This document shows positions 1 to 52,214 of a DNA stretch of 54,014 bases, piece by piece. Position 1 is the first letter of the stretch; every line of letters begins with the position of its first letter. This DNA comes from Sphingobium sp. (GTDB taxonomy: Bacteria > Pseudomonadota > Alphaproteobacteria > Sphingomonadales > Sphingomonadaceae): positions 1-54,014 of the forward strand of contig JACESO010000005.1 of the NCBI GenBank assembly GCA_013911745.1, in the 5' to 3' direction. The translations under genes and the position numbers were made by a program. The notes beneath the pieces were generated by a model. The model searched no databases. It was not told where the DNA came from and saw only the letters and a program-made list of their open reading frames with translations.

Positions 1-394
1 AGCGTATCTCATGGGTCCCCACCACCTCGTCCAGATCGCCCGCCCGCGCCTCGATTGCCTTCAGCCGCATTTGCGCGAGCTCGTCCTCCCGCAGCCCCCA
101 TTGGACCAGCCGCTTCTGGTAGAGATCGTAGTCCTGGCAGACGATCAGCCCCACCTCGCCGGCCTGCAACGCGAGCCCCGTTTCCCTCGACGGCTCGTCA
201 GCAGCCCTCATCTTCGCCTGATAGTGATCGCGCATAGCTCCGTCGCATTGCTCAACCAGCAGGCCGTAATCCTTCTGGTGCCAACGCATAACCACCTCGC
301 GCCATATCGGCAGCGCCAACCATGCGAGCAGCGCTCCAGCGATCAGAGCAGCCGCATGGGTGACGACGCTACTGCGCGCGAATGCGAAGCGCAT
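1..394 (-). CDS. His-Xaa-Ser system-associated membrane-anchored protein (TIGR03982-like), 3' end beyond window
   Basis: The frame is open from an ATG at 394 to the window edge, about 131 codons with no stop, so the C-terminus is missing. The protein has a basic start (MRFAFARSS), one hydrophobic helix around residues 13-30 (ALIAGALLAWLALPIW), then a polar, helical region rich in Glu, Gln and Arg with a Cys in EQCDGA and another in IVCQDY. The start overlaps the end of hxsA by 26 bp and is preceded by GAGG at about 6 bp, so translational coupling is likely. From memory, small membrane proteins of the TIGR03982 family accompany His-Xaa-Ser loci; the position here fits, but the family call rests on topology and context. 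Its role in the system is unknown. Confidence 0.55.
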   Translation of the reverse strand, partial: MRFAFARSSVVTHAAALIAGALLAWLALPIWREVVMRWHQKDYGLLVEQCDGAMRDHYQAKMRAADEPSRETGLALQAGEVGLIVCQDYDLYQKRLVQWGLREDELAQMRLKAIEARAGDLDEVVGTHEIR

Positions 395-968
395 CCAGCA
401 CCTCGGGCGTGATCGTGCCGGTCACGGACAAGCTTTTGTCGGTCTGGAACCTGACCAGCGCCGCCCTGGTTTCTTTGCCGACGATCCCGTCGAGCGCTCC
501 GTGATAGTAGCCCTGCGCCTGTAAGCCTATCTGCACTCGCCGGACGACCAATTCAATCGTCGCCGTGTTGGGGCGAGTGGAAGGGGAGAACGGGTTATCG
601 GTGATCGCCGGCGACGAAGGGAGGACGGAGGAGTCCGGCGTGCTCCTTCGATTGCGCGAGCGAGATGACGACGGCGCCGGCGCCGGTGTGACGCGAGGTC
701 GGCTCGGCGCTCGCGGGGTAGAGGATGGTGCACGATACGTCCCGCTCGAACCGGACCGATGACTGCTGTGTGAGGCGTGGCTGGAGTGCGAACGGTGCTG
801 CGCAAGGAGGAAGCCGTGATCCTGCGCGAACCGCTGCACCCACTGTCCGTCGTTCGGATCGGGTCCGCCAGCGGGCGGCGCCAGGCCGGCGTCCTGCGCG
901 TGCAGGGGCGGCAGCGGGGCAATGCCTGCCATAAGAAGGCTGGAGATCATGAACCTACGCTTCTTCAT
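369..968 (-). CDS. hxsA: His-Xaa-Ser repeat protein HxsA (putative modified substrate)
   Basis: This 199-residue protein has a signal peptide (MKKRRFMISSLLMAGI...LHAQ, cleavage near residue 24) and five consecutive His-Xaa-Ser triplets at residues 58-72 (HRS HSS HAS HSS HRS), followed by a Ser/Thr/Pro/Arg-rich linker. The C-terminal peptidoglycan-binding-type domain spans about residues 137-195 (GLQAQGYYHGALDG, LVRFQ, GTITPEVLDAL). In the known Hxs system HxsA is the presumed substrate of the radical SAM pair HxsB/HxsC, with modification expected in or near the His-Xaa-Ser stretch. The start at 968 overlaps the hxsC stop by 4 bp (ATGA). The signal peptide and cell-wall-binding domain suggest the product acts in the periplasm or envelope. 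The nature of the modification cannot be read from the sequence. Confidence 0.88.
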   Translation of the reverse strand: MKKRRFMISSLLMAGIAPLPPLHAQDAGLAPPAGGPDPNDGQWVQRFAQDHGFLLAQHRSHSSHASHSSHRSGSSGTYRAPSSTPRAPSRPRVTPAPAPSSSRSRNRRSTPDSSVLPSSPAITDNPFSPSTRPNTATIELVVRRVQIGLQAQGYYHGALDGIVGKETRAALVRFQTDKSLSVTGTITPEVLDALRIRAQ

Positions 969-2038
969 AGGGGTGTTACCTCTTCTCGGAGGGCTGGAGG
1001 ATGCCATTCGAAAAACCCACAGCAGGCCGATCTCGCCCGGCAGGCGGAGCAGGACTCGCCGAACCGCTGCTTCCAGTCGGAGATGGAGGCCACCGCCGCG
1101 TGACGGAACGGCTCCGGCACATGGCACAGCGGCACGTTGAAGAGACGAGCGCGGACACCGCGGAGCGTCGCTACGTCGAGGGCCTGCCCGACGGGCGCGA
1201 ACCCGCCACGCAGATCGACATAGAGTTCGCTCCACCGGTTGCGGGCGAAGCCGATGTTCTCCAGACCCATGAGCGACCACTGCTCGACATGTGCGAGATC
1301 GCGCACCACCATGTCCGCCAGATCCACGATGCCCTTGATGGTCGCGCGCGTCAGCACCGTCCGGAGTTCGATCCGGGCTCCGGCCAGCATCAGGTGCGCG
1401 AAGCTGTTGATCAGCCGCTCGTAAGCGCCGACCTTGCCGACGATGCAGTCGTGCGTGAGCGGATCGGCCGAGTAGAGCGGGATGCCCCAGACGACCTTCG
1501 CGTACTCCGGACTCCTCAGGCGGAAGACGTCTTCCTGCCGGAAGTGCTGGGCGTTGGTGAGCACGTGGAAGGACAGGTCCGGCCGGGCCGCGAGCACGTC
1601 CTCGATCATGCCGAGCAGCCTCTCGCGATGCAGCGTCGGCTCCCCGCCCGTGATGCCAATGGTCATGTCCGCGTCGGCCAGCAGACACGCGTCGCGCAGA
1701 AGGTCGAAGCGGTCGTCGTGCGTCTTCTTCGGAGGCTGCGAACACATCACGCACAGTTGGTCGCACTGTTCGGTGACCAGCAGCGAGTTGTGCCGCGATC
1801 CGGATCGAAGAAGCCGGTCGAGCCGCCCCTCGGCGGGACGGACCAGCACGACGTCGCCAGATACCGCCTCGTGCGGATGCTCGATCCTGAGCAGTCCGTG
1901 AGGTCCGCTCCACAGGCTGTCCTCCGAAGACGAGGCGATGCACCGACTGTCGCCTGGATTATTACCTTCCGAGCCGGCCAGCCGCGTCACGAACGGCGCT
2001 TCGGAATCGCTGGATGCGGCGAGAGCGAGCGGGATCAC
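965..2038 (-). CDS. hxsC: His-Xaa-Ser system radical SAM maturase HxsC
   Basis: This 357-residue protein has the radical SAM cluster motif CDQLCVMC (Cys92, Cys96, Cys99) followed by SQPPKK, a pattern typical of HxsC. The SAM-binding GGEP motif is at about residues 131-134. A Cys-rich C-terminus (ESCSACRARSACCGFFEW) could bind an auxiliary iron-sulfur cluster. The GTG start at 2038 overlaps the hxsB stop (GTGA), and its own stop overlaps the hxsA start, so the two maturases and the substrate are translationally coupled. It probably acts with HxsB in the cytoplasm on the HxsA precursor before export. The long open frames on the opposite strand here are composition shadows. Confidence 0.9.
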   Translation of the reverse strand: MIPLALAASSDSEAPFVTRLAGSEGNNPGDSRCIASSSEDSLWSGPHGLLRIEHPHEAVSGDVVLVRPAEGRLDRLLRSGSRHNSLLVTEQCDQLCVMCSQPPKKTHDDRFDLLRDACLLADADMTIGITGGEPTLHRERLLGMIEDVLAARPDLSFHVLTNAQHFRQEDVFRLRSPEYAKVVWGIPLYSADPLTHDCIVGKVGAYERLINSFAHLMLAGARIELRTVLTRATIKGIVDLADMVVRDLAHVEQWSLMGLENIGFARNRWSELYVDLRGGFAPVGQALDVATLRGVRARLFNVPLCHVPEPFRHAAVASISDWKQRFGESCSACRARSACCGFFEWHPPALREEVTPL

Positions 2039-3489
2039 CGTCGCACCCCCAATCGGACATCGTCCCCCGCCAAGTCGAGCCAGCGCCGCATGGAGAAGAG
2101 CACGGCCTGATCCTCCGAGTGGATTAGCTCGAAGGCGAGATCGAACAGGTGCAGGTGACGGCGGCAGAACTCGGTCTTCGGCCGCGGCAGGTCGATCCTG
2201 CCGTAGCGGGCGACGTCGTCAATGAGGTCCCGGCCGCAAAAGGGCTTGTAGGCGCACGCCTCACAGTGCGGATCGCCGTCGTTCGTGGAGGCGGCGTCCA
2301 GCGCCGCGCGCTCAGTCGTATCCCAACCGCGCTTCGCATCCCCGATGGCGAGGTCGATCACGCCCGACCGGGTCAGCATGCGCGCCTCGTCGGTCGGATA
2401 GACCTGCCCGTCGTGGTCGATCACGACGTAGTCGCGACCGACAGGGTTCGGGTTGCGCAGATCGACATGGCGGTCCTGTCCCGGCCGGAATATCCTCCGC
2501 AGCAGTAGGCTGAAGTAGCTCTCCTCGAGGACCATGGTGCGATCGGCCCAGTTCCGCGCAATCAGCGTTCGGACGAACTCCTCGTGGTAGCGCCGCCAGT
2601 CCGCGTTCAGGTCGCGGGCGTGGGGATGCCGCTTGCGGGCAAACCCCTGATAGTTAATCGGCCTGAGATAGATCGAGTGGAGACCACGCGAGGAGAACGC
2701 CTCGATCAGCTCGGAGGCGGGGGGAGGCGAAGCGGGATCTATGGTCGGCAGTGCGGAGATCTTTCCCGGGCCGTAGCGATCGAGCAGGAAGTCCAGGTTG
2801 CGGAGGAAGAGGTCGGTGCGATCAACCGCGCCCGTGCGCTGGCGTCCATGCGTGGCAGCCGCACCGTCGAGCGACGTGCTGATCTGGACGTCCTCCCGGT
2901 CGAAGACGGACAGCACCTCCGATCCGACTTCTTGAAGATTCGTGCAGATGACGAAGGTGGCGTCGACGGCGGCAGGAACCGCGTCCATCACCCTGCGGAG
3001 CAGGTCCGGCCGAAGGGTCGGCTCGCCGCCCTGGAACTCGATTTTGATTGCACGCGCGTCCAGACCGCGAACGATGGCCAGCACGGCGTCGAGCGTCTCC
3101 TCGGACCAATCGTGCCCCCGGGAGCCGACATCCGCCCTCGACACCTGACAGTAGGAACAGGCGAGATTGCAGCGCAGCGTCGGAACGAGGATGAGGTAGT
3201 CCAGCGGACCGGCCGTGCAGCGTCTGCGGGCGGCGGCGAACGTCGCGGCGTGCGTCTGCAGACCCGGTCGGCGTAGGTAACCGGTCCGCGCGAGGAACGC
3301 GGCGTCGCCACCGTCGAGTTCGTCGGCATCGAGGCGAGCCTGCATCCCCTCGTCGGCCAGGAAGAACCTGCCGGCGTCGTCGACGTGCAGGACACCCCCG
3401 ACCACCTTCCTTTGCCTCGTTCCAAGCGAGGAACGGGCGGATGGGCGCCATCGGTCATCGCTGATCACCACCCCCACGGCAGATGCCAT
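2035..3489 (-). CDS. hxsB: His-Xaa-Ser system radical SAM/SPASM maturase HxsB
   Basis: This 484-residue protein has the radical SAM motif CNLACSYC (Cys107, Cys111, Cys114), GGEP at residues 154-157 and a C-terminal SPASM-type Cys set (CEACAYKPFCG at 409-419 with FC near 442) for auxiliary clusters. The N-terminal 90 residues look like a precursor-recognition region ahead of the TIM barrel. ATG at 3489 is preceded by a purine-rich GGGGG/AAGGG ribosome site. It is the first radical SAM gene in the run and is followed by hxsC with a 4-bp overlap. SPASM radical SAM enzymes of peptide-modifying systems make C-C, C-S or C-O crosslinks or epimerise residues; which applies to HxsB here is not known. 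Confidence 0.9.
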   Translation of the reverse strand: MASAVGVVISDDRWRPSARSSLGTRQRKVVGGVLHVDDAGRFFLADEGMQARLDADELDGGDAAFLARTGYLRRPGLQTHAATFAAARRRCTAGPLDYLILVPTLRCNLACSYCQVSRADVGSRGHDWSEETLDAVLAIVRGLDARAIKIEFQGGEPTLRPDLLRRVMDAVPAAVDATFVICTNLQEVGSEVLSVFDREDVQISTSLDGAAATHGRQRTGAVDRTDLFLRNLDFLLDRYGPGKISALPTIDPASPPPASELIEAFSSRGLHSIYLRPINYQGFARKRHPHARDLNADWRRYHEEFVRTLIARNWADRTMVLEESYFSLLLRRIFRPGQDRHVDLRNPNPVGRDYVVIDHDGQVYPTDEARMLTRSGVIDLAIGDAKRGWDTTERAALDAASTNDGDPHCEACAYKPFCGRDLIDDVARYGRIDLPRPKTEFCRRHLHLFDLAFELIHSEDQAVLFSMRRWLDLAGDDVRLGVRR

Positions 3490-3595
3490 CCCTTACCCCC
3501 TGGTTCAGTCGACATCGAGTTCCGACCGCAACTTTCGAAGGCTAGAACGGCGGCGACGACATTGGAAGATATATCCTCGGTATGCGCTTCAAGTT

Positions 3596-3844
3596 TTACT
3601 TGAATGGATTTGCTACCGTTCCGGAATCCCCGCCGTCGCTCTCGATGCGTTCAGGCAGAGTCCCCGTCTGAAAAGCCTCGAGCAGAGCGTCGGCGAACTC
3701 CTTCAACCTCCTGGCAGCTTCGAGACCCTCCCGATCTCGCGATATCGAGAGGTTTCCGGTGACGACGATTGTGGTCGTCCCGTTCTCCACGGACATGCCG
3801 GCTATGGTCGTCGAAGTGTCGTCGTCTGCGAAGGGCCTTATCAT
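3596..3844 (-). CDS. Small protein of unknown function upstream of hxsB (occupies the HxsD position)
   Basis: This 82-residue protein starts at ATG 3844 (a GTG one codon earlier is possible). It lies 14 bp after the nuclease stop and 106 bp before hxsB, on the same strand. It has a predicted beta-rich first half (TTTIVVTGNLSI) and an amphipathic helix (GLEAARRLKEFADALLEAF), then a polar tail. HxsD proteins normally carry a LLNDYxLRE-type motif, and that motif is not present, so this is not called HxsD. It could be a divergent recognition or leader protein of the Hxs system or an immunity/accessory protein for the adjacent nuclease. No family was recognised. Confidence 0.6.
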   Translation of the reverse strand: MIRPFADDDTSTTIAGMSVENGTTTIVVTGNLSISRDREGLEAARRLKEFADALLEAFQTGTLPERIESDGGDSGTVANPFK

Positions 3845-3858
3845 CACTGCCTCTCTGA

Positions 3859-4638
3859 TTAATCAGCTTGGGATTCCCCGAAGAGCGGGAACTTTGGCAC
3901 CCGGCGCTTCTCCTGGGCGGATAGAGCAGGGAACGGGTCCACGCCGGTGCGATCCGTCAAGGCCGCCAAGGACACAACTCGCCAGCGCGATCGTGCCTCG
4001 TTGGTCGCGATCCAGGCGCCCGCACCCTGTCCGGGCACATAGACCGCCTTCCACACGTGACTGGGAACGAGCACGCGCCCCCCGATGGTGCGGAGCTTGC
4101 GCGACTCGTAGCTCGGACCGGTCACCACATAGACTTTGCCGAGCGTGACAGCGAGCGACCGCACATACTGTTCGAGAGCCGCCCACCCGCTGCGGTTCAG
4201 CGCTCCGGCCTGCGGGACCATGTTCGCGAGGCTGAATGTCTCGAAGTCGTCCTCGGACTTGCTCATGTCGCCGGACGGAGCCATGTGTCCCCTATCGAAA
4301 CCGCCGCCGACGTAATCGGCGAGCTCGGCACGTTCATCGGACGGCAGACGCGCCTCCGGATGAAAGCGGTTGTCGCGGTATTCGAACGCCATCGCCGCCC
4401 GCGCGGTGTCCCGGGTGATCGCTTCGGCGGCATAGAGCGGCGAGCGCGTCATCCCCGAGTGAAGGACAGAGAAGGAGCGGAAGCACAGCGGTCTGGTAGT
4501 CCTACCCCTCGCATGATCGATCACGACAGGTGGTCGCTCATTCGCATAGAGCACGGCGCAACTAGACGGAGCCTGAGAGGACGCACCAGCACACAGTACG
4601 AGTGCGAACGGCAGGAGCATGAGCCGGAGTCGATGCAT
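3859..4638 (-). CDS. Secreted DNA/RNA non-specific endonuclease (NucA/NUC1 family)
   Basis: This 259-residue protein has a signal peptide (MHRLRLMLLPFALVLCAGASSQA) and the family's catalytic motif DRGHMAPSGD at residues 115-124, with His118 as general base. It also has the downstream metal-binding set Asn148 (GALNRSGWAALE) and Glu155. The fold core (VYVVTGP, VPSHVWKAVYVPG) is also typical. Such enzymes are Mg-dependent, sugar-non-specific nucleases exported to periplasm or medium. The gene ends 14 bp before the small protein and is followed by hxsB, hxsC and hxsA on the same strand, so it may be part of the Hxs operon. Whether it is a functional partner or a chance neighbour is not settled. 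Confidence 0.9.
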   Translation of the reverse strand: MHRLRLMLLPFALVLCAGASSQAPSSCAVLYANERPPVVIDHARGRTTRPLCFRSFSVLHSGMTRSPLYAAEAITRDTARAAMAFEYRDNRFHPEARLPSDERAELADYVGGGFDRGHMAPSGDMSKSEDDFETFSLANMVPQAGALNRSGWAALEQYVRSLAVTLGKVYVVTGPSYESRKLRTIGGRVLVPSHVWKAVYVPGQGAGAWIATNEARSRWRVVSLAALTDRTGVDPFPALSAQEKRRVPKFPLFGESQAD

Positions 4639-5220
4639 GCATAGCGCTATACGAGCAGCTCGACGCCTTCGCGATCACTTTCGCTTCCAAGGCCTGCGGT
4701 CTGATGCATGGCTTGCCTCCCGTGACCTTCACGCGATCGGTTAGTAGGAGCGAGCCTAGAGACCTGAATGAGAGTCCAGACCTGGGAAGTCAGAAGTGGC
4801 CGCCAAATGGGCTTGGGGGTCTTAGCGACTTAGAACCCGCGCGAACGCGCGTCCGCTTTTTGTCCTTTGGCGGCTAAAGCGGCCAGTCAGCAGCCGGCCC
4901 AATTGCCGCCCCAGTCCTTGCCCAGTGGACCGTGCGGCGAGTGTCAGGTTTTAGCGATAGACCTGCCATTGTACCGGCCGTGCGGGAACGGCGAGATTGT
5001 CCCAAACTCCGGCTTTCACGGGGCGCATTCTCGGCCGCTAACCCGTAGATGAACAAGCGACCGGAGTGGGGGGCCGGGAGAGGAACGGGGGCGTCTGCTT
5101 CTGGGTCGTCGTCACTGCGGCGGCAAATATCGACCACCCCTAATCGTTCAGATCAGCCATCGCGAAGGTCCTAACCTGACGAAAGCTGCCGCTGACCCGT
5201 ATTTTTTCGATGCCATTCCG
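4639..5220. other. Intergenic region between the nuclease and the HsdR-N-like gene
   Basis: About 580 bp with no supported gene. Short open frames exist on both strands (for example 4874-5137 minus) but have unlikely composition, no ribosome site and no recognisable domain. The upstream part (4640-4760) is the likely promoter region for the nuclease/Hxs run. A stretch near 5047-5066 resembles one near 7424-7443 (17 of 18 bases), too short to interpret. Confidence 0.4.
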
Positions 5221-7963: not shown

Positions 7964-10468
7964 TTGAGACAGATCGTAACGCGGGCGCTGCTCGCGAGTG
8001 CTGCGCTATTGCCTGTTCAGATCGCTACCGCACAGGATAACGGCACCGATGCCCGCCTGCTGCCTGAAGTCGTTGCCGATGGCGAGCGCACCGACGACAG
8101 CTATGTCATGGGCACCGGCGCCGACGCCGGCACCACGCGCATCACTGAAAAGGAAATTCGCGCTCGCACGCCCGGATCAGGCGACGTCAATCAACTGCTC
8201 AAGGCGCTACCCACGATCCAGTTCCGCGGCGACGAGTTCCTCGCGACGCGGGAGGACATTCAGGACATCCGCCCGTCGGACATCGCCATTTCAGGCGGCC
8301 GTTTCTACGAAAACCTCATCAGCATCGACGGTATCGATGCCAATGCCCGTGTCGATATAACACAGGACAATCCCCAGCATTTTGCAGAGCCGACTGGGGC
8401 CGGCGCGCAATCTCTTTGGGTCGATGCCAATCTGGTTGGCGAGATCGTGGTGCGCGATTCCAACATTTCTGCCGAATATGGACGCTTCACCGGTGGCGTG
8501 CTGGACATCAAGACGCGCGATCCCAAGCGACGCTTCGGCTTCACGAGCACCCTGTCCTACACGTCCGACGCACTGACCCATTTCAAGATGTCGGACGCTT
8601 CGCGTGAGGCAATCGGCGACGATGCCATGCCAGAAAAGCCCTCCTTCGAAAAATGGCGCTACGGTGTTACAGTCGATGCCCCGCTCAACGACGATATCGG
8701 GTTGCTGCTGGGCTACAACCGGTCGCGCGCCGATGTGGTCTATACGCGCGGGGCCAATTATGGGAACAGCCGCTTCGGCCAGTCCAGTGTCAGCGACAAT
8801 TATCTAGCCAAGCTGGCCTACGACATCCGCACCGACCTGAAACTGAGCGGCCAGTTCGTCTACACGCCTTATGAGAGCGAGTCCGCATCTGCCAACGGCG
8901 TGGACAACATCGTCACGTCCCACGGCGGCGGCATTACCAGCAAACTGGAACTGAGCAAATCGGGCGATACCAATTGGTCGATCTCAGCCAGCCTCTCGCA
9001 CAGCGACACCAGTCGCGAGGCCTCTTCAGACAATTATTCAATCCCGTCCTGGACGACAAACGGCAATGTGTGTTCGGCTACCAATTGCACAATCGGTGGC
9101 TTTGGCGATGTCGATCAGTGGCAGAATAACTATGCCCTGACCGGCCGCTGGTCGACCATCTTCGGACCTGGTCGCCTGAGCCTCGGCGTGGACTATCAGA
9201 GGATCGAGGCCATGCGCAGCCGGCCCGATGATAATTATGCCTATTCGCGCGGGACCGACGAGGAGGACGCCGCCAATATCGTCTGCGCTGACGGCAACAG
9301 CCTGACCTGTGTCACCGGTGAATATGCACTGGAGCAATATTCGGTCTATGAAGCCTATCGGGCGCGGGTAAATCTCGACAGCTACGCTGCCTGGGCAGAA
9401 TATCAGTTGAAGCTCGGCACCGTCTCACTGCGCGGTGGCCTGCGCTATGATTATGAGAGCTTCCTGGGCAATCATAATTTCTCGCCGCGCCTGTCGGCCA
9501 GCTATGATCTTCCCTGGGACGGCTGGAACATCACGCTGGGCGCCAATCGCTATTATGGCCGTTCCATGCTCGCTTATGCCCTTCGCGAGCAATATCCTGA
9601 CAATTTCGTCTATCGTCGCGCCGCCACCACATCGGACTCCAGCCTGATCTATGCGGACAGTGACTGGTATCTCTACAGCACCAGCAAATCCGCCAGCTAT
9701 TCCGACGGCAACAAGAAGACACCCTATTCGGACGAACTGTCGGCGGCGCTGACTGCAGGCGTGCTGGGCGGGAGCCTGCGGATCAAGGGCATCTATCGCG
9801 AAGGCAAGGATGAATTCGTCCGCTCGGTTGGTGAAACGCTCACCACGACGCTCGCCAACGGCCGCACAACGACCTACACCAACTATGTCGTCACCAATGA
9901 CGGGTTTAGCAAATATCGTGGCCTGTCACTCGAATGGACACGCAGCTTCGGCAAACATTCGATCGCACTCAGCACAAACTTCTCCAAGACCAAGAGCAGC
10001 AACGACGATTATATCGTCGACATCGAGGATCTGATCGAAAACCCTCTGGTTGTGTTCGATGGAGAGGTGCGCAGCTATGCCGATGTGATGGCAATGAACC
10101 AGCGCCCCGACATGGCCGCCCCCCTGATCGTCAATGCCACCTGGACCGCCAACTGGCTGGACGATCGCATCACCACCAACATGAACCTGCGCTATCGCAG
10201 CGGTTTCGACAGGATTGAGGATACCGGCCAGAGCGCTACCGTGGATGGCACATCCTACGACCTTTACGACTATGTCCATTATCCCGATGCGTTCGACATG
10301 AACATGAACGCGCAGGTGGAGGTGATCCGCTCCCGCTATGGCACGCTGACCGCCGATGTGCGTGTGGCGAACCTGCTCGACAACACGCCGTCGCCCAACA
10401 GCAGCTCCACCTCTCAACCTTATCAATATGGCCGTTCCTTCTGGTTCGGGCTGAATTATCGCTTCTGA
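7964..10468 (+). CDS. TonB-dependent outer membrane receptor
   Basis: This 834-residue protein uses a TTG start (MRQIVTRALLASAALLPVQIATAQ signal peptide), with an AAGGGG-like ribosome site upstream. A plug domain follows (EIRARTPGSGDVNQLLKALPTIQF, then GGRFYENLISIDGID), then a long beta-barrel of alternating aromatic strands ending in FWFGLNYRF with the usual terminal Phe. A Cys pair in the barrel (NVCSATNCTIGG) may mark an extracellular loop disulfide. The di-haem peroxidase gene follows 4 bp after its stop and tonB lies nearby, all near the same candidate iron operator. This suggests a metal- or metallophore-linked uptake unit; the ligand is unknown. Confidence 0.88.
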   Translation: MRQIVTRALLASAALLPVQIATAQDNGTDARLLPEVVADGERTDDSYVMGTGADAGTTRITEKEIRARTPGSGDVNQLLKALPTIQFRGDEFLATREDIQDIRPSDIAISGGRFYENLISIDGIDANARVDITQDNPQHFAEPTGAGAQSLWVDANLVGEIVVRDSNISAEYGRFTGGVLDIKTRDPKRRFGFTSTLSYTSDALTHFKMSDASREAIGDDAMPEKPSFEKWRYGVTVDAPLNDDIGLLLGYNRSRADVVYTRGANYGNSRFGQSSVSDNYLAKLAYDIRTDLKLSGQFVYTPYESESASANGVDNIVTSHGGGITSKLELSKSGDTNWSISASLSHSDTSREASSDNYSIPSWTTNGNVCSATNCTIGGFGDVDQWQNNYALTGRWSTIFGPGRLSLGVDYQRIEAMRSRPDDNYAYSRGTDEEDAANIVCADGNSLTCVTGEYALEQYSVYEAYRARVNLDSYAAWAEYQLKLGTVSLRGGLRYDYESFLGNHNFSPRLSASYDLPWDGWNITLGANRYYGRSMLAYALREQYPDNFVYRRAATTSDSSLIYADSDWYLYSTSKSASYSDGNKKTPYSDELSAALTAGVLGGSLRIKGIYREGKDEFVRSVGETLTTTLANGRTTTYTNYVVTNDGFSKYRGLSLEWTRSFGKHSIALSTNFSKTKSSNDDYIVDIEDLIENPLVVFDGEVRSYADVMAMNQRPDMAAPLIVNATWTANWLDDRITTNMNLRYRSGFDRIEDTGQSATVDGTSYDLYDYVHYPDAFDMNMNAQVEVIRSRYGTLTADVRVANLLDNTPSPNSSSTSQPYQYGRSFWFGLNYRF

Positions 10469-10472
10469 CGGG

Positions 10473-11555
10473 ATGACGATCCGCTTCCTGCGCCCCGTTC
10501 GCCTCGTGATGATGCTGGCCTGCGCCGCCATAGTTGCGGGGCCGATGGTGCGGGCAACCGCCGAGCCGGCGAGCCTGCGACTTCTGTATGCGGGCTCGCC
10601 GGGAAGCTGGCCGCGCCCATTGCTAAAGGATGGCGCGGCCTTCAGCGAATTTGCCCCCTTGCCCGCAAGGCCGGCGATGAGCGATCGGGACAAGGCCCTT
10701 GCCGAGATCGGCCTGCGCCTGTTCGATGATCCAGCACTGTCCCGATCGGGCCAGATCGCCTGCGCATCCTGCCATAACAGCGAATTAGGTCTGGCCGATG
10801 GAATTCGCACATCCTTTGGCCACGACCGCCAGCGCGGCCGACGCAACGCCCAGTCGCTGTTCACCGCCGCGTGGATGACACCCCTCTTCTGGGATGGCCG
10901 CGCCGCAGACCTGGAGGCGCAGGCGCCGCATCCGCTGGTCGACGGCAAGGAAATGGCGAGCAGCATCCGCATCGTCGAGCGCCGGGTCAATCATGACCGG
11001 AGCTATCGGACTGCCTTCGCCAAACTCAATGGCCGGCGGCGGATAAGCATCGCCGACGTGAGCGCCGCGCTTGCCGCGCATGAGCGGACCCTACGACCGC
11101 CGCAATCGAAATGGTCCCGCTTCATCGCCGGCGATCATCGGGCACTGGATGACCAAGAACTGGAAGGGATGCATCTGTTCCGCACCAAGGCAGGTTGCGT
11201 CAATTGCCATAATGGACCGCTGCTGTCCGATCGGCAGTTCCACAATCTGGGCCTGAGCTTCTATGGCCGCCGGCTGGAGGATCTGGGCCGCTACGAGGTG
11301 ACCGGCGCAGCCGCAGATGTCGGCCGGTTCCGCACGCCTTCGCTGCTCGGCGTCAAGCAAACCGCTCCCTATATGCATGTCGGCCTGTTCCAGACACTCG
11401 ACAATGTCGTTGCCTTTTACAATGGCGGCGGCGGAAAGGACCGCACGAAGAGGCCCGGCAATGTGCCCAGCCCTCAGCCCGATCCACTGCTAGCACCGCT
11501 CGGGCTCAGCAAAACGGAGCGCGATGCCCTGATCGCCTTCCTCCAGACATTATAG
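10473..11555 (+). CDS. Di-haem cytochrome c peroxidase family protein (MauG/MbnH-type)
   Basis: This 360-residue protein has a signal peptide (FLRPVRLVMMLACAAIVAG...RATA) and two c-type haem sites, CASCHNSELGLADG in the N-terminal half and CVNCHNGPLLSDRQFH in the C-terminal half. It also has FWDGRAADLEAQAPHPL and RTPSLLGVKQTAPYMHVGLFQTL, which are standard for bacterial di-haem peroxidases and MauG/MbnH oxidases. It acts in the periplasm, either reducing peroxide or oxidising a protein residue. It starts 4 bp after the receptor stop, so the two are almost certainly co-transcribed. No MbnP-like partner was recognised in the window. Whether it is a peroxidase or a modifying oxidase is open. Confidence 0.88.
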   Translation: MTIRFLRPVRLVMMLACAAIVAGPMVRATAEPASLRLLYAGSPGSWPRPLLKDGAAFSEFAPLPARPAMSDRDKALAEIGLRLFDDPALSRSGQIACASCHNSELGLADGIRTSFGHDRQRGRRNAQSLFTAAWMTPLFWDGRAADLEAQAPHPLVDGKEMASSIRIVERRVNHDRSYRTAFAKLNGRRRISIADVSAALAAHERTLRPPQSKWSRFIAGDHRALDDQELEGMHLFRTKAGCVNCHNGPLLSDRQFHNLGLSFYGRRLEDLGRYEVTGAAADVGRFRTPSLLGVKQTAPYMHVGLFQTLDNVVAFYNGGGGKDRTKRPGNVPSPQPDPLLAPLGLSKTERDALIAFLQTL

Positions 11556-41267: not shown

Positions 41268-41581
41268 GGCTGTTCATTTCTTGATGCTTGGGGCCGATCT
41301 CTCGGACCCCGATCCGAACACCATCTTTAAGAGGGACAGCCATTAACCTGGCTACTCTTGAGACGCCGGCCCATCACGGCATCTACGGAAGCGGCGGTGA
41401 TCGATCGAACGGAAACGTCTTCGGTGCCCAACTATCCACTCCGAAACCGGAATCCTTGATGCGCGCGAAGACGTAAGCTGCTTTCCTATCACTGCAGAAA
41501 TGAGCAGCGGGCATTCGGGTGCTCAGTTTGCCTGACATCTCACCGTCTGGCGGGTGCAGAAGGATGGACGAGGAATCACGT
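41268..41581. other. Region between IS110 remnant and adhesin gene
   Basis: About 310 bp with no supported gene. It probably holds the left end of the IS110-type element and the adhesin promoter. A GC-rich near-palindrome GGGGCCGATCTCTCGGACCCC lies near 41289-41309. Nothing else was recognised. Confidence 0.4.
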
Positions 41582-44500
41582 ATGGCGGTCGACATTATCG
41601 ATAAAACTACTGGGGCAGTGGAGCAGAGCGCCTTAGAGTCCATCGATTTGGATAGTGCAAGCATTGTTCGTCTGAACATGAGCCGCGATGCTGTACTCTC
41701 ACTGGAACAGGCTGAGAAGGATTTGGTTGTCCGATTGGCGGATGGCCAAGTCATCCGTGTGTCCAACTTCTACGAACGCTTTGATGGTCGCGACAACAAT
41801 CTGATCCTGCAGGAAGCCGATGGCACCCAGTGGCTGACCCATTCCAGCAGCCGTTTTCCACGCTTTTCCTTCTTGAACGACCTTGACGAACTGATTGGCG
41901 CAGCCGGATCGGCCGGTGCAGCTGGGTCCTCTTTGATCCTGCCCGCCATTCTGGGTGGCGTGGGCCTTGCCGGCGTCGCGGCAGCAACCAGCAGCGTTGA
42001 TGACGAGTCAGATGATGGCGACGCGGACGCGGACGCGGACGCTGATGCAGACGCCGATGCCGATGCAGACGCTGACGCAGATGCCGACGCCGACGCCGAC
42101 GCCGACGCAGATGCTGACGCCGACGCTGATGCAGACGCCGATGCTGATGCTGATGCTGATGCCGATGCTGATGCTGATGCCGATGCCGATGCAGACGCCG
42201 ATGCGGACGCCGACGCCGATGCTGACGCAGATGCCGATGCAGATGCAGATGCGGATGCGGACGCCGATGCTGACGCTGACGCTGATGCTGATGCGGACGC
42301 AGATGCTGACGCCGACGCCGACGCCGACGCCGATGCCGATGCGGATGCGGATGCGGATGCGGATGCCGATGCAGATGCAGATGCAGATGCAGACGCCGAT
42401 GCAGATGCAGACGCCGACGCCGATGCTGACGCTGATGCTGACGCCGACGCTGATGCAGACGCCGACGCAGATGCAGATGCGGATGCCGATGCCGATGCAG
42501 ATGCAGACGCCGACGCCGACGCCGATGCAGATGCGGATGCGGATGCCGATGCAGATGCGGATGCAGACGCCGATGCAGACGCCGACGCCGACGCCGATGC
42601 TGACGCAGATGCAGATGCAGATGCTGACGCTGATGCTGACGCCGACGCGGACGCGGACGCGGATGCTGACGCTGATGCAGATGCTGACGCTGATGCAGAT
42701 GCTGACGCAGATGCAGATGCGGATGCGGATGCGGATGCGGATGCCGATGCAGACGCCGATGCCGATGCAGACGCCGACGCAGATGCCGATGCCGATGCTG
42801 ACGCTGACGCTGACGCTGACGCTGATGCTGATGCTGATGCTGATGCAGACGCCGATGCAGACGCCGACGCGGACGCGGATGCTGACGCTGATGCAGATGC
42901 TGACGCAGATGCAGATGCAGATGCAGATGCAGATGCAGATGCAGATGCGGATGCGGATGCCGATGCCGATGCAGATGCAGACGCCGATGCCGATGCAGAC
43001 GCCGACGCCGACGCCGACGCAGATGCCGATGCAGATGCGGATGCAGACGCCGATGCAGACGCCGATGCCGATGCCGATGCAGACGCAGATGCCGATGCCG
43101 ATGCTGACGCTGACGCTGACGCTGACGCTGATGCAGACGCCGATGCAGACGCCGACGCGGACGCGGATGCTGACGCTGATGCAGATGCTGACGCAGATGC
43201 AGATGCAGATGCAGATGCGGATGCGGATGCGGATGCGGATGCCGATGCAGATGCAGACGCCGATGCCGATGCAGACGCCGACGCCGATGCAGATGCGGAT
43301 GCAGACGCCGATGCAGACGCCGATGCCGATGCCGATGCAGACGCTGATGCTGATGCTGATGCTGACGCAGATGCGGATGCGGATGCCGATGCCGATGCTG
43401 ACGCTGACGCTGACGCCGACGCCGACGCCGACGCAGATGCCGACGCCGATGTTGATGAGCCTGCGCCGCCTTCGGCCGCGGTGAATGCGTCTGGGACGGT
43501 GTGTGCGGGGGTGGGCGAGCCGAACGCCCGGATCGAGATCCGCTCGGTAGAAGGTGTACTGATCGGCAGCGGGATGGCTGATGCCGATGGCAGCTATGCA
43601 ATCACGCTCGATCCGCCGCTCGACGATGGCGAGAGGGTGCAGGTCACGCAGATAGACGCTGCGGGCAATGTATCCGCGCCGACCCTTGCGATCGCGCCCG
43701 ATCTGACTGCGCCGGTGACCCCCGATGCGACACTGGATAGTCCAACCAGTGTGTCTGGCACAGGCGAACCAGGAGCGACGGTCACGGTGTCGGACCGCGA
43801 TGGAACGGTGCTGGGCACCGCGCAAGTCGGAACCGACGGCAGCTTCACTGTGGCGCTGAGCGCCCCGCAGACCAATGGCGAGACGCTGAGCGTCACCCAG
43901 CGCGACGCTGCGGGCAATGAATCCGACCCAGTGCTGCTGGTCGCCCCTGATGCCACTGCGCCCGAAGCGCCGACCGCCACAATCGCGGGTGACGGGTCGA
44001 CCGTCACCGGGGCGGGCGAACCGGGCGCGACCGTCCGCGTCTTTGGGCCGGGCGGCGCCCTCATCGGCTCTGCCACGGTGCTGGGCGATGGCAGCTACAC
44101 GATTGTTCTCGACGAAGCGCAGACCAATGGGCAGATGTTGACGGCGATCCAGACAGATAATGCGGGCAATGCATCCGACCCGGTTGGGCTGACCGCGCCC
44201 GATCTGGATGCGCCCCTGGCGCCGGTGGCGGCGATCACGCCGGATGGCGCGATCCTGTCGGGTACGGGCGAGATCGGCGCCACCATCGAAGTGCGCGATG
44301 CGGACGGGACGCTGATCGGCACTGATACGGTCCAGCCGAATGGCAGCTACAGCATCACCCTGACGCCGCCCCTCATCGACGGCGAAAGCGTGGCCGTCAT
44401 CCAGATCGACGCGGCCGGCAATGTGTCCGATCCCACCCCCATCGTCGCGCCCGACCTGACCGCGCCGGAAGCGCCGACGGGCCTGATCGCGGCCGATGGC

Positions 44501-47500
44501 GGATCGATCAGCGGGACCGGCGAAATCGGCGCGACCATCCGGGTGCGCGACGCGAGCGGCGCGGTGATCGGCACGGTTACGGTCGATAGCGACGGCAATT
44601 ATCGCGTCGATTTCGATCCTGCGCTGACGGATGGCGAAGCGTTGAGCGTCACCCAGAGTGACGCGGCCGGCAATGTGTCGCCCGACATCGACATGATCGC
44701 GCCAGACTTCACCCCGCCGCCTGCGCCGTCCGCGACGATCGACGGCACCGGATCGGTGGTGACGGGCACGGTGGTGACGGGCGAGGGCGTCGCCGGATCG
44801 ATCATCGAGGTTCGCGACGCGGACGGCACGCTGCTTGGCACCGCGACGGTTGACGCGCAGGGCAATTACACGGTGATGCTCGACACCCCGCAGGTGGATG
44901 GCGAAGCGCTTGCGGTGACGCAGGTGGATGGCGCGGGCAATGTGTCCGATCCCACCCCCATCGTCGCACCCGACCTGACCGCGCCGGAAGCGCCGACGGG
45001 CCTGATCGCGGCCGATGGCGGATCGATCAGCGGGACCGGTGAAATCGCCGCTACCATCCGGGTGCGCGACGCAAGCGGTGCGGTGATCGGTACGGCTACG
45101 GTCGATAGCGACGGCAATTATCGCGTCGATTTCGATCCCGCGCTGACCGATGGGGAAGCGCTGAGCGTCACCCAGAGCGACGCGGCCGGTAATGTGTCGC
45201 CCGACATCGACCTGACCGCACCCGACTTGACTGCGCCTCCGCCGCCGACAGCGACCATCGGCGCGTTGGGCGCGGTCGTGACCGGAACGGGTGTCGCGGG
45301 CGCCGACATTGAAGTGCGGTCGCAAGATAGCACTTTGCTGGGCACCGCGACAGTCAACGCCCAGGGCAATTACGCAGTGACCCTGTCACCGCCGCGAGTG
45401 GACAGCGAGCCGCTGACCGTCACGCAGGTGGACGACGCGGGCAATGTCTCCGATGCTGTCGACCTGATCGCCCCGGACCTCACGCCGCCGGCCCCGCCGA
45501 CCGCCGACATCGCTGGTGATGGCGCAAGCATGAGCGGCACGGGTGAGGTCGGCGCGACAATCACCATAACGGACCCTACCGATGTCGTGATCGGCACTGC
45601 GACCGTCAATGCGGATGGCGACTGGACGGCAACGCTTACACCCGCGCAAGTACATGGCGAACCGCTGACGGTGGTGCAGAGCGATGCCGCCGGCAATGAG
45701 TCCACGGATGTGACCGTAGTAGCGCCCGACCTAAACGGCCCGGATGCGCCCGATCCGGTAACGGCGACCATCTCCGCCGATGGTGCGGTCGTGTTCGGTT
45801 CGGGCGAACCGCTTGCGACCGTAACGGTCACGGGCCCGGGCGGTATTCCGCTGGGCACGGCGCAGGCGGATGGTGATGGCAATTATAGCATCACCCTCGA
45901 TACCCCGCAGCGGGATGGGGAAACCCTGGTCGCGGTGCAGACGGACGCGGAAGGCAACAGCTCTGTCCCGACGCTTGTCACCGCGCCAGACTTGACTGCC
46001 CCCGAAGCGCCAATAGCGGTCATCGACGATAGCGGGTCTGTTGTAACTGGAACGGGCGAGGCGGGCGCAGATGTCACCGTCCGGGACGCTGGCGGAACCA
46101 TCATCGGCACCGCCATGGTGGATGGCCAGGGCAATTACGCTGTCACTTTGAACCCCGCGCAAAATGACGGATCGACGCTGAGCGTCACGCAGACAGACGC
46201 CGCGGGCAATGAATCCGACGCGATGATGGTGCCCACGCCCGACTTGGTCGCGCCTGACGCGCCAACAGGGATGGTTTCAGCGGATGGCAGCGCGGTGACG
46301 GGCAGCGGTGAAGCGGGCGCGACGATCAGCGTTACCGACGGCGCCGGCAATGTGCTGGGCACGAATATAGTGGATGGCAATGGCAACTACAGCGTCGCAA
46401 TCACGCCCCCGCTGATCGATGGCGAGCCGTTGACGGTGGCGCAGACCGATGCAGCCGGCAACGCTTCGCCCTCCATCGGTCTGGTCGCGCCCGATCTCAC
46501 CGCGCCCGATGCCCCGACCGGAACCGTCACGCCCGATGGCAGCGCGGTGACGGGCATGGGCGAGGCCGGTGCGACGATCAGCGTTACCGATGCCGAAGGA
46601 TTGGTGCTGGGCACCGCTACGGTCGGCGTAAATGGCGCCTTCGTGGTCATGCTGAGCACCGCGCAAGTGAACGGCGAGACGCTGAACCTGGTCCAGACTG
46701 ACGGGGCGGGCAACGCGTCGATCGCGGTCGATGTGTTCGCGCCCGACATCACACCACCTGCGGCGCCGGCCGGCACCATTACTCCCGATGGCGCAGTTGT
46801 GAACGGCAGCGGCGAGCCGGGCGCCATCATCCAGATCACCGATGCCGCCGGCACGGTGCTTGGAACGGCGACGGTCGCCGGCAATGGCAGCTTCAGCGTG
46901 ACGCTGGACGTCCCGCAGACCAATGGCGAGGCGTTGACGCTGGTGCAGACCGATGGGGCGGGCAATGAGTCGCCGCAGGTGCCGATCACGGCGCCCGACC
47001 TCACCGCGCCCGACGCCCCGACGGGGACCGTTTCTTCCGACGGCATGGTCGTCACCGGCACCGGCGAGGCGGGTGCGACGATCGAGGTTACGGACCCGGA
47101 CGGCGCCGTCATTGGCACCGCGACGGTCGGCGCCAATGGTACCTATATTGCCGCGCTGACGAGCCCCCAGGTCAACGGCGAAACGCTGAGGATCGTTCAG
47201 ACCGACGCGGCTGGCAACATATCCGACGATGTCGATATCATCGCCCCTGACATCACCGCACCCGATGCGCCGACTGGCGTGATCAATGGTGAAGGCACGA
47301 AGGTGGATGGCACGGGTGAGCCTGGCGCTACCATCCGCATTACCGACCCCGAAGGCGTCGTGATCGGCACGGCCACGGTGGCGGCGAACGGCACCTACAG
47401 TGCGACGCTGACGCCGCCGCAGATCAATGGCGAGACACTGGGCGTCGTGCAGGCGGACGCGAGCGGGAATGCGTCGCCATCCGTTTCGACCATCGCACCG

Positions 47501-50500
47501 GATCTGACGGCGCCGGCTGCGCCCACCGGGACCGTCACATCCGACGGCACGGTCGTGACCGGCACCGGGGAGGCGGGCGCCACCATCCGCATCACCGATC
47601 CCGAAGGCATGGTGATCGGCACGGCCACGGTGGCGGCGAACGGCACCTACAGCGCCGCGCTGACGACGCCGCAGGTCAATGGCGAGATGCTGGGCATTAC
47701 CCAGGCGGATGATGCCGGCAATGTCTCGCTTCCCACGACGGCAGTCGCACCCGACATCACGGCGCCAGCCGCGCCGACCGGCAGTGTATCGGCGACCGGC
47801 GTGACCGTCACCGGCACAGGTGAGGCGGGCGCGACGATCCGCATCACCAGCGCCACCGGCCAGTTGCTGGCGACCGCCATTGTCGCGGCCAACGGGAGCT
47901 ACAGCGCCACGCTGTCGACGCCACAGGTCAATGGCCAGAGCCTGACCCTGGTGCAGGCGGACGCAGCAGGCAATATATCGCCACCGGTGCCGTTGACCGC
48001 GCCCGATATCACGGCGCCCGACACGCCGACGGCGGCGATCGCCGCCAATGGCGGCTCCGTCACCGGCACGGGCGAGGCGGGCGCAACGGTCACGGTCCGC
48101 GACGCTGAGGGCCTGATCCTGGGCACTGGCATTGTTGCTGCGGGCGGTAGCTATACCGTCACGCTCAGCCCGGCGCAGCGCAATGGCGAGGCGCTATCGG
48201 TGACGCAGACGGATGGGGCGGGTAACGAATCCGGCGACGTGCCGCTGACCGCGCCCGACCTGACTGCGCCGGACGCCCCGACCGCGATCGTATCGGCAAA
48301 TGGCGCGACCGTCACGGGAACGGGAGAAGCAGGCGCGACCATCACCATCACCAACGAGGCAGGCGTCATCATCGGCACTGCGCTGGTGGCGGCCAATGGC
48401 AGCTACACGGTCATCCTGACTACGCCGCAGGCCAACGGCCAGACCATCGACGTCATCCAGACGGATGCGGCCGGCAATGTTTCGCCCGAAATCAGCGTCG
48501 ATGCGCCCGACATCACGGCACCGCCGGCGCCAGCCAATCTGGCGATCGACGACAGCGGCACGGTGGTGACCGGTGTCGGCGAAGCGGGCGCGACCGTGGA
48601 GGTGCGCGACGCCACCGGGACGCTTATCGGGACGGGCGTGGTCGCAGCCAACGGGTCTTTCCTCGTGACCCTGTCGGACCCGCAAATCGGCGGCGAGGAT
48701 CTGACGGTGACCCAGACCGACTTGGCTGGCAACCAGTCCGACCCCGGAATCGTGGGTGCGCCATTTGATATTGCCGCATTCGACAACAGCACCATCGCGC
48801 TGGCCGATCTGCTGCCGGTGACCATCCCGGTCAATCATGGCAATGCCAGCTATGTGGCGTTGGTCTCGCTGGGTATTCTCGATCTGGATGCGCAGGTGCT
48901 GGGTACGCCCAGCGTCGGCTTTACCGTAGCGGACGGCCACAGCCTGAACGCGGTATTCACTTATGACTCCACGCTGAGCATCGGCGTTCTGAGCGGGTAC
49001 AGCGTTGCCGTGCAGCAGTGGAACGGGTCGCAATGGGTCGCGGTAGACGGCGGCGGCGGTGCTTCCTTGCTTGAGTTGACGTTGCTGAACGGCAATCTCG
49101 TCAGCAAAGAGGCGCTTGGGCCGGGGCAATATCGCGCTTTCGTGACGTTCAATGACGTTCTAGGCGTGGGCTTGCTGGGGTCGCTGAACGTATCGGGAAT
49201 TGATGCCGATTTCACCGACGTGGGCAGCATTGTCCCGCAGCAGATCGAAGGCAATGTCATTACTGATGCCGGCCCGACCGGCCAGGTCGATATTGTCAGC
49301 CCCCAAACGGAAATACAGAGCGTAACCGTGAACGGCGTGACTACGGCGGTGACCGCCGATGGCACGGTGGTGAACGGAGCGTTCGGCCGACTGATCATCA
49401 ATCTGGACGGAAGCTATAGCTACACGCCCTCGGCCAGTGCAGCCGCGATCGGCAAGACGGATGTGTTCCAATATACGCTGATCGATCGCAGCGACGGGGA
49501 GACGGAAACGGCCAACCTGTCAATCGCGATCGGCAGCGACGACATCACCGCCGCCCCGATCGCCAATGACGACAGCGCTACGGCCGGGGCCCAATATCGC
49601 AATGTCGTGGAAACGGTGCCGACCAGTCAGGAATTTGCGTTCAATACGCCGATCTTGAGCACGAGGTCGGGTAATGACAGTTTCTCTGTGGCGGCGAACA
49701 GCGAAGCGGACATTACCATCACGGTGATCCGCGGCGGCACGATCGCCTTGCTACCGACCTACACCATCACGGTTCGCAACGGCGCCGGGCAGGTGGTCGA
49801 CAGTTATACGGGAACCACGGTCGCCGGGCTGCCGCTTGGATCGGGCATCACACACACCTTCGAGGATCTGCCATCCGGCAACTATACCTATACGGTGTCG
49901 AGCACCAATCTGTTGGGCACGGCCTATAGTTCGACGGTGTATATCAGCCAGTCGATCACGCATCTGGACCAGTTTGAGGTCGCAGGCGTCACCGGCACGC
50001 AGGGCGACCTGCTTGCCAATGATGTCACCGGCACCGACTTCCCAGTCGTGAAAGTTGGCACGGGCAGCGGTTTCGTCGAAGTCGGCGACACCCCCGTGAC
50101 GGTGCAGGGTAGTTACGGCACGTTGACGGTGACCGAGACGGGCGATTACAGCTACATGCCGCGGGGCACCATCCCTTATTCAACGGTCGATCTGGCCGAC
50201 AGCTTCACCTACCAGATCGTCCAGCCCAACGGCGTCACGTCGACCGCAACGCTGAACGTCACCATCGATGTCGGGACGGGCGTGGCCGGGGCCGCGATAT
50301 TGGCCGAGCCGAGCAGTCTGATGATGGACGAGGCGGTCCTGACAAGTGACGAGAGCACGGTCGTACTCAGTGCTTCTCCCGAAGCGGAGCTATCTATCGA
50401 GGACGATGCGATGGCGCGCCTTTCCAGCGCAGACCTTATCATGGCGGCGACGGAGCCGGAAACCGGCGCGATCGATCCGGGCGACCGGCCTGTCCTGTCC

Positions 50501-50776: not shown

Positions 50777-50889
50777 CAGTGTTTGATAACATAAATAACA
50801 GAAGTGGGAGGACAATGGTGGCAAATCATTAGCTTATCGGTAATCTGTGTCGGGCATGCTGTTCATCACTGGATGAGGATGTGACCGAC

Positions 50890-52212: not shown

Positions 52213-52214
52213 AG

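What the first reader, a model, noticed from the sequence alone, without database searches (positions are those of the whole stretch)
369..4638. Hxs peptide-modification locus headed by a secreted nuclease
Seen: six same-strand genes with short gaps or 4-bp overlaps: DRGH nuclease, small protein, hxsB, hxsC, hxsA, membrane protein. Known: HxsA/B/C form a predicted radical SAM modification system of unknown product function. Inference: the nuclease (14 bp from the next gene) may be co-expressed with the modified envelope protein, hinting at a role in DNA uptake, competition or defence. I do not know of a described nuclease link.
Basis: partly seen in the sequence, partly recalled or inferred. 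Interest (0 to 1): 0.72.

Follow-up and report, generated by a model that had tools for sequence, protein, structure and literature searches.

The report
Mobile nuclease module heading Hxs locus
A known but unexplained bacterial peptide-modification gene set sits behind a separate, widespread secreted-nuclease gene pair; nucleases lie beside this gene set far more often than chance in one bacterial order, most likely because both travel on mobile DNA and possibly because they work together.

Summary
The genes are as described (minus strand): secreted Endonuclease_NS nuclease, 83-aa protein, hxsB, hxsC, hxsA, and a sixth gene cut by the contig end, which is TIGR03982, a known Hxs protein. No hxsD was found. 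In 37 hxs-bearing Sphingomonadales genomes, 7 of 14 PF01223 nuclease genes lie within 10 kb of hxs (about 0.1 expected under uniform placement); in 42 other alphaproteobacterial hxs genomes, 0 of 13. The near-hxs nucleases fall in three clades and show three same-strand, operon-like layouts: before hxsB, after hxsA, after the MauG-like gene. But the nuclease is not an Hxs part. Nuclease plus 83-aa protein is a stand-alone pair: all 3 of 397 family genomes with the small protein, and 21 of 23 plasmid loci checked, have a nuclease beside it; two of those three genomes lack hxs. Other hxs-near nucleases have hxs-free relatives beside lipase or CBASS genes. Sphingomonadales hxs neighbourhoods hold conjugation, transposon and anti-phage genes. 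Best reading: two accessory modules united on mobile DNA, the nuclease working like element-borne DNases that block DNA uptake. A joint envelope function stays possible and untested.

The parts
3859..4638 (-). DNA/RNA non-specific endonuclease (Endonuclease_NS, PF01223), 259 aa, N-terminal signal-peptide-like segment (by eye), DRGH at residues 115-118, N148 and E156
   Evidence: 152 bits; PDB relatives NucA 2o3b/1zm8, EndoG, EXOG, Serratia nuclease; motif positions
3596..3847 (-). 83-aa cytoplasmic-looking protein, constant partner of the nuclease, no known family; proposed inhibitor/immunity protein (inference)
   Evidence: no family; 3 of 397 genomes, each next to a nuclease; 21 of 23 plasmid loci checked; no detectable link to HxsD
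3490..3595 (-). 106-bp gap between small gene and hxsB, 71% identical to the L049 gap; no E. coli-type promoter or terminator seen
2035..3489 (-). hxsB, radical SAM/SPASM maturase, CNLACSYC cluster motif
   Evidence: (TIGR03978 337 bits, below cut-off 370)
965..2038 (-). hxsC, radical SAM maturase, CDQLCVMC motif
   Evidence: (TIGR03977 308 bits)
369..968 (-). hxsA, secreted His-Xaa-Ser repeat protein (HRSHSSHASHSSHRS) with C-terminal peptidoglycan-binding domain
   Evidence: TIGR03979 131 bits; PF01471
2..394 (-). TIGR03982-family His-Xaa-Ser system protein, cut by the contig start; in relatives a TIGR03981 MauG-like gene follows
   Evidence: (81 bits, cut-off 40)
4639..4706 (-). upstream edge of the block shared with L049; homology stops 68 bp before the nuclease start; presumed promoter region

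Best explanation
Two accessory modules sit in tandem. (1) A class-A Hxs cassette (hxsB-C-A-TIGR03982, normally followed by the TIGR03981 MauG-like gene, here beyond the contig end): HxsB and HxsC are predicted to modify the His-Xaa-Ser repeats of HxsA, a secreted protein with a peptidoglycan-binding domain; the MauG-like di-heme lipoprotein may finish the oxidation outside. (2) A self-contained secreted-nuclease module: an exported Endonuclease_NS enzyme and an 83-aa partner, likely its cytoplasmic inhibitor. The nuclease most likely degrades DNA in the periplasm or outside the cell and so blocks uptake of competing DNA, as DNases carried by mobile elements do. The two modules were brought together on mobile, defence-rich DNA and are now inherited as one block, perhaps as one transcript. 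Shown: gene content, block structure, separability of module 2, enrichment. Inferred: enzyme activity, inhibitor role, transcription, physiological role.
For: Small protein in 3 of 397 family genomes (G000, G103, G226), each directly after a PF01223 nuclease; G103 and G226 have no HxsC match at E<=1e-50. On plasmids the small protein is in 36 records; of 23 checked, 21 have the nuclease just upstream on the same strand (13 by coordinates; 8 of 10 viewed), in Alpha-, Beta- and Gammaproteobacteria; the ten viewed stretches (about 5.2 kb) hold no hxs gene. Window 1-4706 matches L049 at 86% and homology ends 68 bp before the nuclease, so nuclease and hxs are one inherited block. A 10.6-kb block with nuc-small-hxs and more is 99.98% identical in L049 and L050 with different flanks. 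Near-hxs nucleases lie in three clades that also hold hxs-free members. L075's patatin-nuclease pair recurs without hxs in L188; L202 (hxs-) has nuclease after a Tle1-like lipase and a CBASS cyclase. Neighbour ORFs of 21 Sphingomonadales hxs loci: 69 PADLOC families matched by 138 ORFs against 6 by 117 control ORFs; Pfam finds TraH, TraN, TraF, CagX, RepB, resolvases, IS66 there. Mobile-element DNases that cut transformation are in print (PMC4774983, PMC10893306, passages).
Against: Three same-strand, operon-like placements next to hxs (window/L049/L050, L064, L083) look more intimate than shared island life needs. The window contig itself shows no integrase, conjugation or plasmid gene by eye, and its GC (65.0%) is close to the rest (63.3%), so mobility rests on relatives. 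The 83-aa protein is found without a nuclease in 2 Sulfuricurvum plasmids. The G226 nuclease looks disrupted. The structure model of the small protein is poor (pLDDT 57.6) and says nothing on inhibition. No activity data. Whether Campylobacter Dns and IdeA are PF01223 enzymes was not checked here.
Confidence: 0.6

Rival explanations
1. Functional partnership: HxsA, modified by HxsB/C and fixed to peptidoglycan, and the secreted nuclease act together in the envelope, for example HxsA anchoring or gating the nuclease as a barrier to phage, plasmid or free DNA, or feeding on DNA.
For: 7 of 14 PF01223 genes in 37 hxs+ Sphingomonadales genomes lie within 10 kb of hxs, expected 0.098, P 2e-12; 5 of 12 without G663 and G664, P 1.2e-8; 0 in 40 control regions of 20 kb. 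Several nuclease clades and three operon-like layouts: before hxsB (window, L049, L050), directly after hxsA (L083, 1 bp), after the MauG-like gene (L064, 7 bp). Defence-gene neighbourhoods.
Against: 31 of 38 Sphingomonadales and 42 of 42 other loci show no such nuclease in the DNA held. A Klebsiella plasmid with hxsD-B-C-A has no annotated nuclease in 21 kb. The P value assumes uniform gene placement, which islands violate. Nuclease presence is not associated with hxs in the even family sample (2 of 10 against 45 of 387, p 0.34). Three of the seven (L054, L069, L075) are 1.5-4.2 kb away and beside lipase genes; L054 and L069 on the other strand.
Confidence: 0.27
2. Plain island co-residence: nuclease and hxs are unrelated cargo that pile up in the same variable sites, with no selection on the pairing.
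For: Conjugation, plasmid-partition, transposase and defence families around hxs; two further PF01223 genes lie about 45 kb from hxs on the same contig (G670, G696); relatives of the same nucleases live in hxs-free contexts.
Against: Random cargo would seldom land within 10 bp, on the same strand, directly behind hxsA or the MauG-like gene (L083, L064), or be kept as one 86% identical block in the window and L049.
Confidence: 0.3
3. The 83-aa protein is a diverged HxsD, so the nuclease is followed by a complete hxsDBCA operon.
For: It stands where hxsD stands in other loci; HxsD-like ORFs overlap or abut hxsB in 50 of 81 loci.
Against: Profile comparison with HxsD-like proteins gives 0.3% probability; the protein follows nucleases where no hxs exists; hxsD is also missing in relatives without a nuclease, such as L051-L053.
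Confidence: 0.03

Closest known systems
His-Xaa-Ser (Hxs) system, TIGR03976-TIGR03979, TIGR03981, TIGR03982 (Haft and Basu 2011, recalled; cited in PMC9062424, passage seen)
   Same: hxsA with HxS repeats and peptidoglycan-binding domain, hxsB, hxsC, TIGR03982 in conserved order
   Different: hxsD not found; headed by a nuclease module; HxsB scores under the curated cut-off; MauG-like gene beyond the contig end
Mobile-element DNases that inhibit transformation (Dns of CJIE1, CJIE2/CJIE4 nucleases, IdeA; PMC4774983 and PMC10893306, passages seen)
   Same: exported nuclease on accessory, mobile-looking DNA
   Different: different hosts; has a conserved 83-aa partner; activity and effect on transformation not measured; common enzyme family not checked here
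Endonuclease_NS enzymes such as Anabaena NucA (2o3b, 1zm8) and Serratia nuclease (1ql0)
   Same: PF01223 fold by sequence, conserved DRGH/N/E motif region aligned to NucA
   Different: NucA's known inhibitor NuiA (recalled) was not compared with the 83-aa protein

Membership tests
Hxs system | HxsA with His-Xaa-Ser repeats | tested here: met
   TIGR03979 131.3 bits, cut-off 121.65; repeats read
Hxs system | HxsC maturase | tested here: met
   TIGR03977 308.2 bits, cut-off 267.9
Hxs system | HxsB maturase at or above the curated cut-off | tested here: not met
   TIGR03978 337 bits against 370; best family and residues 86-471 matched, so a diverged HxsB; 54-60% identical to HxsB of seven related loci
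Hxs system | HxsD | tested here: not met
   No HxsD-like ORF in the window by iterated profile; 83-aa protein unrelated by hhalign
Hxs system | TIGR03982 companion protein | tested here: met
   81 bits, cut-off 40, gene cut by the contig start
Hxs system | TIGR03981 MauG-like companion | tested here: inconclusive
   None over cut-off in the 81%-complete genome; contig ends where the gene would be; found in 26 of 80 related loci
Endonuclease_NS nucleases | PF01223 domain with DRGH motif and N/E metal site | tested here: met
   152 bits, cut-off 23; alignment to NucA; roles of the residues recalled
Mobile-element transformation-blocking DNases | secreted DNase activity that lowers transformation | not testable with these tools
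   needs DNase plates and transformation assays
Known anti-phage defence systems (PADLOC) | match to a defence model | tested here: not met
   nuclease: none; HxsB: only weak viperin matches of the radical SAM superfamily, best 40.8 bits
Toxin/nuclease-inhibitor pair | constant adjacent small partner gene | tested here: met
   3 of 3 family genomes, 21 of 23 plasmid loci checked of 36
Toxin/nuclease-inhibitor pair | the partner binds and inhibits the nuclease | not testable with these tools
   needs co-purification and inhibition assay

The most novel reading that the evidence does not exclude
Sphingomonadales Hxs cassettes form, with recruited secreted nucleases of several lineages, an envelope barrier against incoming DNA: the radical-SAM- and MauG-modified, peptidoglycan-bound HxsA holds or activates the nuclease where phage or plasmid DNA enters, which is why the pair recurs in defence islands.
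Probability: 0.12. Interest if true: 0.8.

Novelty: new variant of a known kind. Interest (0 to 1): 0.45.

Why it matters
The product and purpose of the Hxs system are unknown to the papers found. A repeated pairing with exported nucleases in one order, among conjugation and defence genes, gives the first concrete place to look: DNA entry across the envelope. Separately, the 83-aa partner family of plasmid-borne Endonuclease_NS nucleases is a candidate new nuclease inhibitor that a simple co-expression test could settle.

Tried and rejected
Small protein as HxsD: rejected (hhalign 0.3%; pair found without hxs). Nuclease as a fixed Hxs part: rejected (7 of 80 related loci; canonical Klebsiella plasmid locus without it). 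Presence association genome-wide: weak. In the even family sample 2 of 10 hxs+ against 45 of 387 hxs- (p 0.34); 13 of 37 hxs+ Sphingomonadales against 45 of 387 gives p 4e-4 but compares different samples and slightly different E limits.

Structure: AlphaFold of the small protein from two sequences gave pLDDT 57.6; no fold search was run on it. SNase idea: an iterated profile found SNase-like ORFs in 17 of 81 hxs loci and 0 of 40 control regions, but the profile drifted; with PF00565 itself 47 places in 27 of 37 genomes were found and only two (L071, L078) coincide with hxs loci, so I make no claim. L050's block edges at first looked like element ends; on reading they look like insertion-sequence ends (by eye), so only the window/L049 edge is used. 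No terminal repeats of 8 bp or more were found at the L049 block ends. The PADLOC control is coarse: it counts matched families, not proteins; 138 of 145 picked hxs-neighbour ORFs (core and companion genes removed by hand) from 21 of 38 loci, and 117 of 146 control ORFs from 17 of 40 regions (cut to fit the size limit); no Pfam control was run. The P value uses rounded genome sizes, a 24-kb span and uniform placement.
Full report
What is there. The six minus-strand genes exist at the stated places. They are a PF01223 nuclease, an 83-aa protein without a family, HxsB, HxsC, HxsA, and a sixth protein that runs off the contig and is TIGR03982, a known Hxs companion. HxsB misses its curated cut-off (337 against 370 bits) but no other family comes near. 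HxsA carries five tandem HxS triplets and a peptidoglycan-binding domain. No HxsD-like ORF was found.

Relatives. The genome (2.89 Mb in 147 contigs, 81% complete) is closest among the loci found to Sphingomonas (89% identical HxsC). HxsC over the cut-off is sparse: 11 of 94 genomes of the genus, 10 of 397 of the family, 12 of 346 of the order sample. A scan of named genomes gave 80 loci (the best 80 of 243 matches), all with hxsA, hxsB and hxsC: 38 in Sphingomonadales (37 genomes) and 42 in other Alphaproteobacteria (by record titles). TIGR03982 was found in 27 of 80 and the TIGR03981 MauG-like gene in 26 of 80 (two checked with the NCBIfam model). In the window's own genome no TIGR03981 protein passes the cut-off; the only matches are fragments of a different MauG-like gene at 10473-11555.

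The refutation test. A nuclease lies in the locus DNA in 7 of 80 loci: L049, L050, L054, L064, L069, L075, L083; 7 of 38 Sphingomonadales, 0 of 42 others. Flanks are up to 10 kb; 54 of 80 loci (26 of 38 Sphingomonadales) have them in full, so the counts are lower bounds. Whole-genome searches give the background: 14 PF01223 genes in 13 of 37 Sphingomonadales genomes and 13 genes in 12 of 42 others. Seven of the 14 are the near ones. Uniform placement predicts 0.098 (P 2e-12); without the window's close kin G663 and G664, 5 of 12 remain (P 1.2e-8). No such nuclease was found in 40 control regions of 20 kb, nearly all from hxs-bearing genomes. In the genus 6 of 94 genomes have a PF01223 gene and in 2 of the 6 it is near hxs, the window's included. 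Against this, presence of the nuclease is not linked to hxs in the even family sample (2 of 10 against 45 of 387, p 0.34).

How close. Before hxsB on the same strand: window, L049, L050. Directly after hxsA: L083. After the MauG-like gene: L064, 7 bp. L075 is 1.5 kb away on the same strand, L054 2.9 kb and L069 4.2 kb on the other strand. A maximum-likelihood tree of 44 nucleases (those up to 480 aa, identical ones dropped) puts the near-hxs ones in three clades that also hold hxs-free members; the label needs at least 5 changes, 4 forced by well-supported branches. Changes may be gains or losses.

The nuclease is its own module. The 83-aa protein occurs in 3 of 397 family genomes, each time right after a PF01223 gene; two of the three (G103, G226) are not among the ten HxsC-bearing genomes. 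In 72,556 plasmid records it occurs in 36. I checked 23 of the 36: 13 by comparing coordinates with nuclease hits and 10 by viewing about 5.2 kb each. 21 of 23 have the nuclease upstream on the same strand, once with an RDD gene between; two Sulfuricurvum plasmids do not. None of the ten viewed stretches holds hxs; the 13 others were not checked for hxs. The nuclease kinds near hxs in L054, L064, L075 and L083 have relatives in hxs-negative genomes: L188 repeats the patatin-nuclease pair of L075, and L202 has the nuclease after a Tle1-like lipase in a cluster with a CBASS cyclase (481 bits).

One inherited block on variable DNA. Window 1-4706 aligns to L049 at 86% and the match stops 68 bp before the nuclease start; nothing else in the window matches L049. 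Identity is 84% for the nuclease, 80% small, 71% gap, 90% hxsB, 87% hxsC, 82% hxsA. L049 and L050 share 10.6 kb at 99.98% with different flanks; L050's flanks look like insertion sequences. ORFs beside 21 Sphingomonadales hxs loci match PADLOC models for Pycsar, CBASS cyclases and E1-E2 partners, Lamassu-type and other candidates (69 families for 138 ORFs) against 6 families for 117 control ORFs; Pfam finds conjugation, partition and transposase families there (no control). In the window itself mobility is not visible.

Mechanism. From the families: HxsB and HxsC (radical SAM) modify HxsA's repeats in the cytoplasm, HxsA is exported and binds peptidoglycan; the MauG-like enzyme may act outside. 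All this is prediction. The nuclease has an export signal by eye and keeps the DRGH/N/E region aligned with NucA, so it probably cuts DNA in the periplasm or medium. Mobile elements in Campylobacter, Vibrio and Bacillus carry DNases that lower transformation 10- to 1000-fold (PMC4774983, passage; PMC10893306, passages); this is the working analogy. The 83-aa protein lacks a signal by eye and is proposed as the inhibitor that protects the producer; nothing here tests it, and its AlphaFold model is poor.

Literature. Passages read: PMC9062424 (HxsB/HxsC named, no product), PMC8446631 (hxs genes on an island of Pseudomonas aeruginosa), PMC6537148 (Hxs on a variable Vibrio locus). The founding paper is not held and is recalled. 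No nuclease link appeared.

Verdict. Real observation, and a real neighbourhood enrichment limited to Sphingomonadales; the nuclease is a separable module, so the link is most simply mobile-DNA bookkeeping with perhaps a shared transcript. The bold alternative, an Hxs-nuclease envelope barrier, is not excluded.

Noticed in passing
window 7964-11555, + strand: A long outer-membrane-receptor-like gene (no Pfam match at E<=0.01) is followed 4 bp later by a CCP_MauG di-heme gene (143.6 bits) distinct from TIGR03981.
   Followed up: partly
L049 13301-14002 and 20 further hxs loci: An unnamed membrane protein with a conserved Y-S-x-N-C-Y motif lies beside hxs in 21 of 80 loci, mostly divergent from the hxsD/hxsB side, in three downstream of the cassette; a candidate new Hxs companion in Sphingomonadales.
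   Followed up: partly
L049 14204-17719; L102, L118, L121, L125, L128: A von Willebrand-type protein and a kinase-like protein (TerY-P-like triad by eye) follow hxs in two Sphingomonas and five rhizobial loci.
   Followed up: partly
L202 2827-8306: In an hxs-negative genome a secreted PF01223 nuclease ends a run of same-strand genes with a CBASS cyclase, an AAA-like protein and a Tle1-like lipase.
   Followed up: partly
L083 3298-6647: Pycsar cyclase (695 bits) beside an E1-E2 protein (641 bits) about 2 kb from an hxs-nuclease locus.
   Followed up: no
L057, L058, L060, L085, L113: SNase-like exported proteins whose usual D-A-P-E stretch reads A-A-R-E lie near hxs; catalytic residues are recalled, activity doubtful.
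   Followed up: partly
window 41519-54014, + strand: A 3085-aa repeat-like ORF followed by outer-membrane-channel-like and transporter-like ORFs, resembling a giant adhesin with type I secretion (by eye).
   Followed up: no
plasmid records: 317 of 411 plasmid records with an HxsB relative are Klebsiella; the one viewed carries hxsD-B-C-A between insertion sequences in a resistance region.
   Followed up: no
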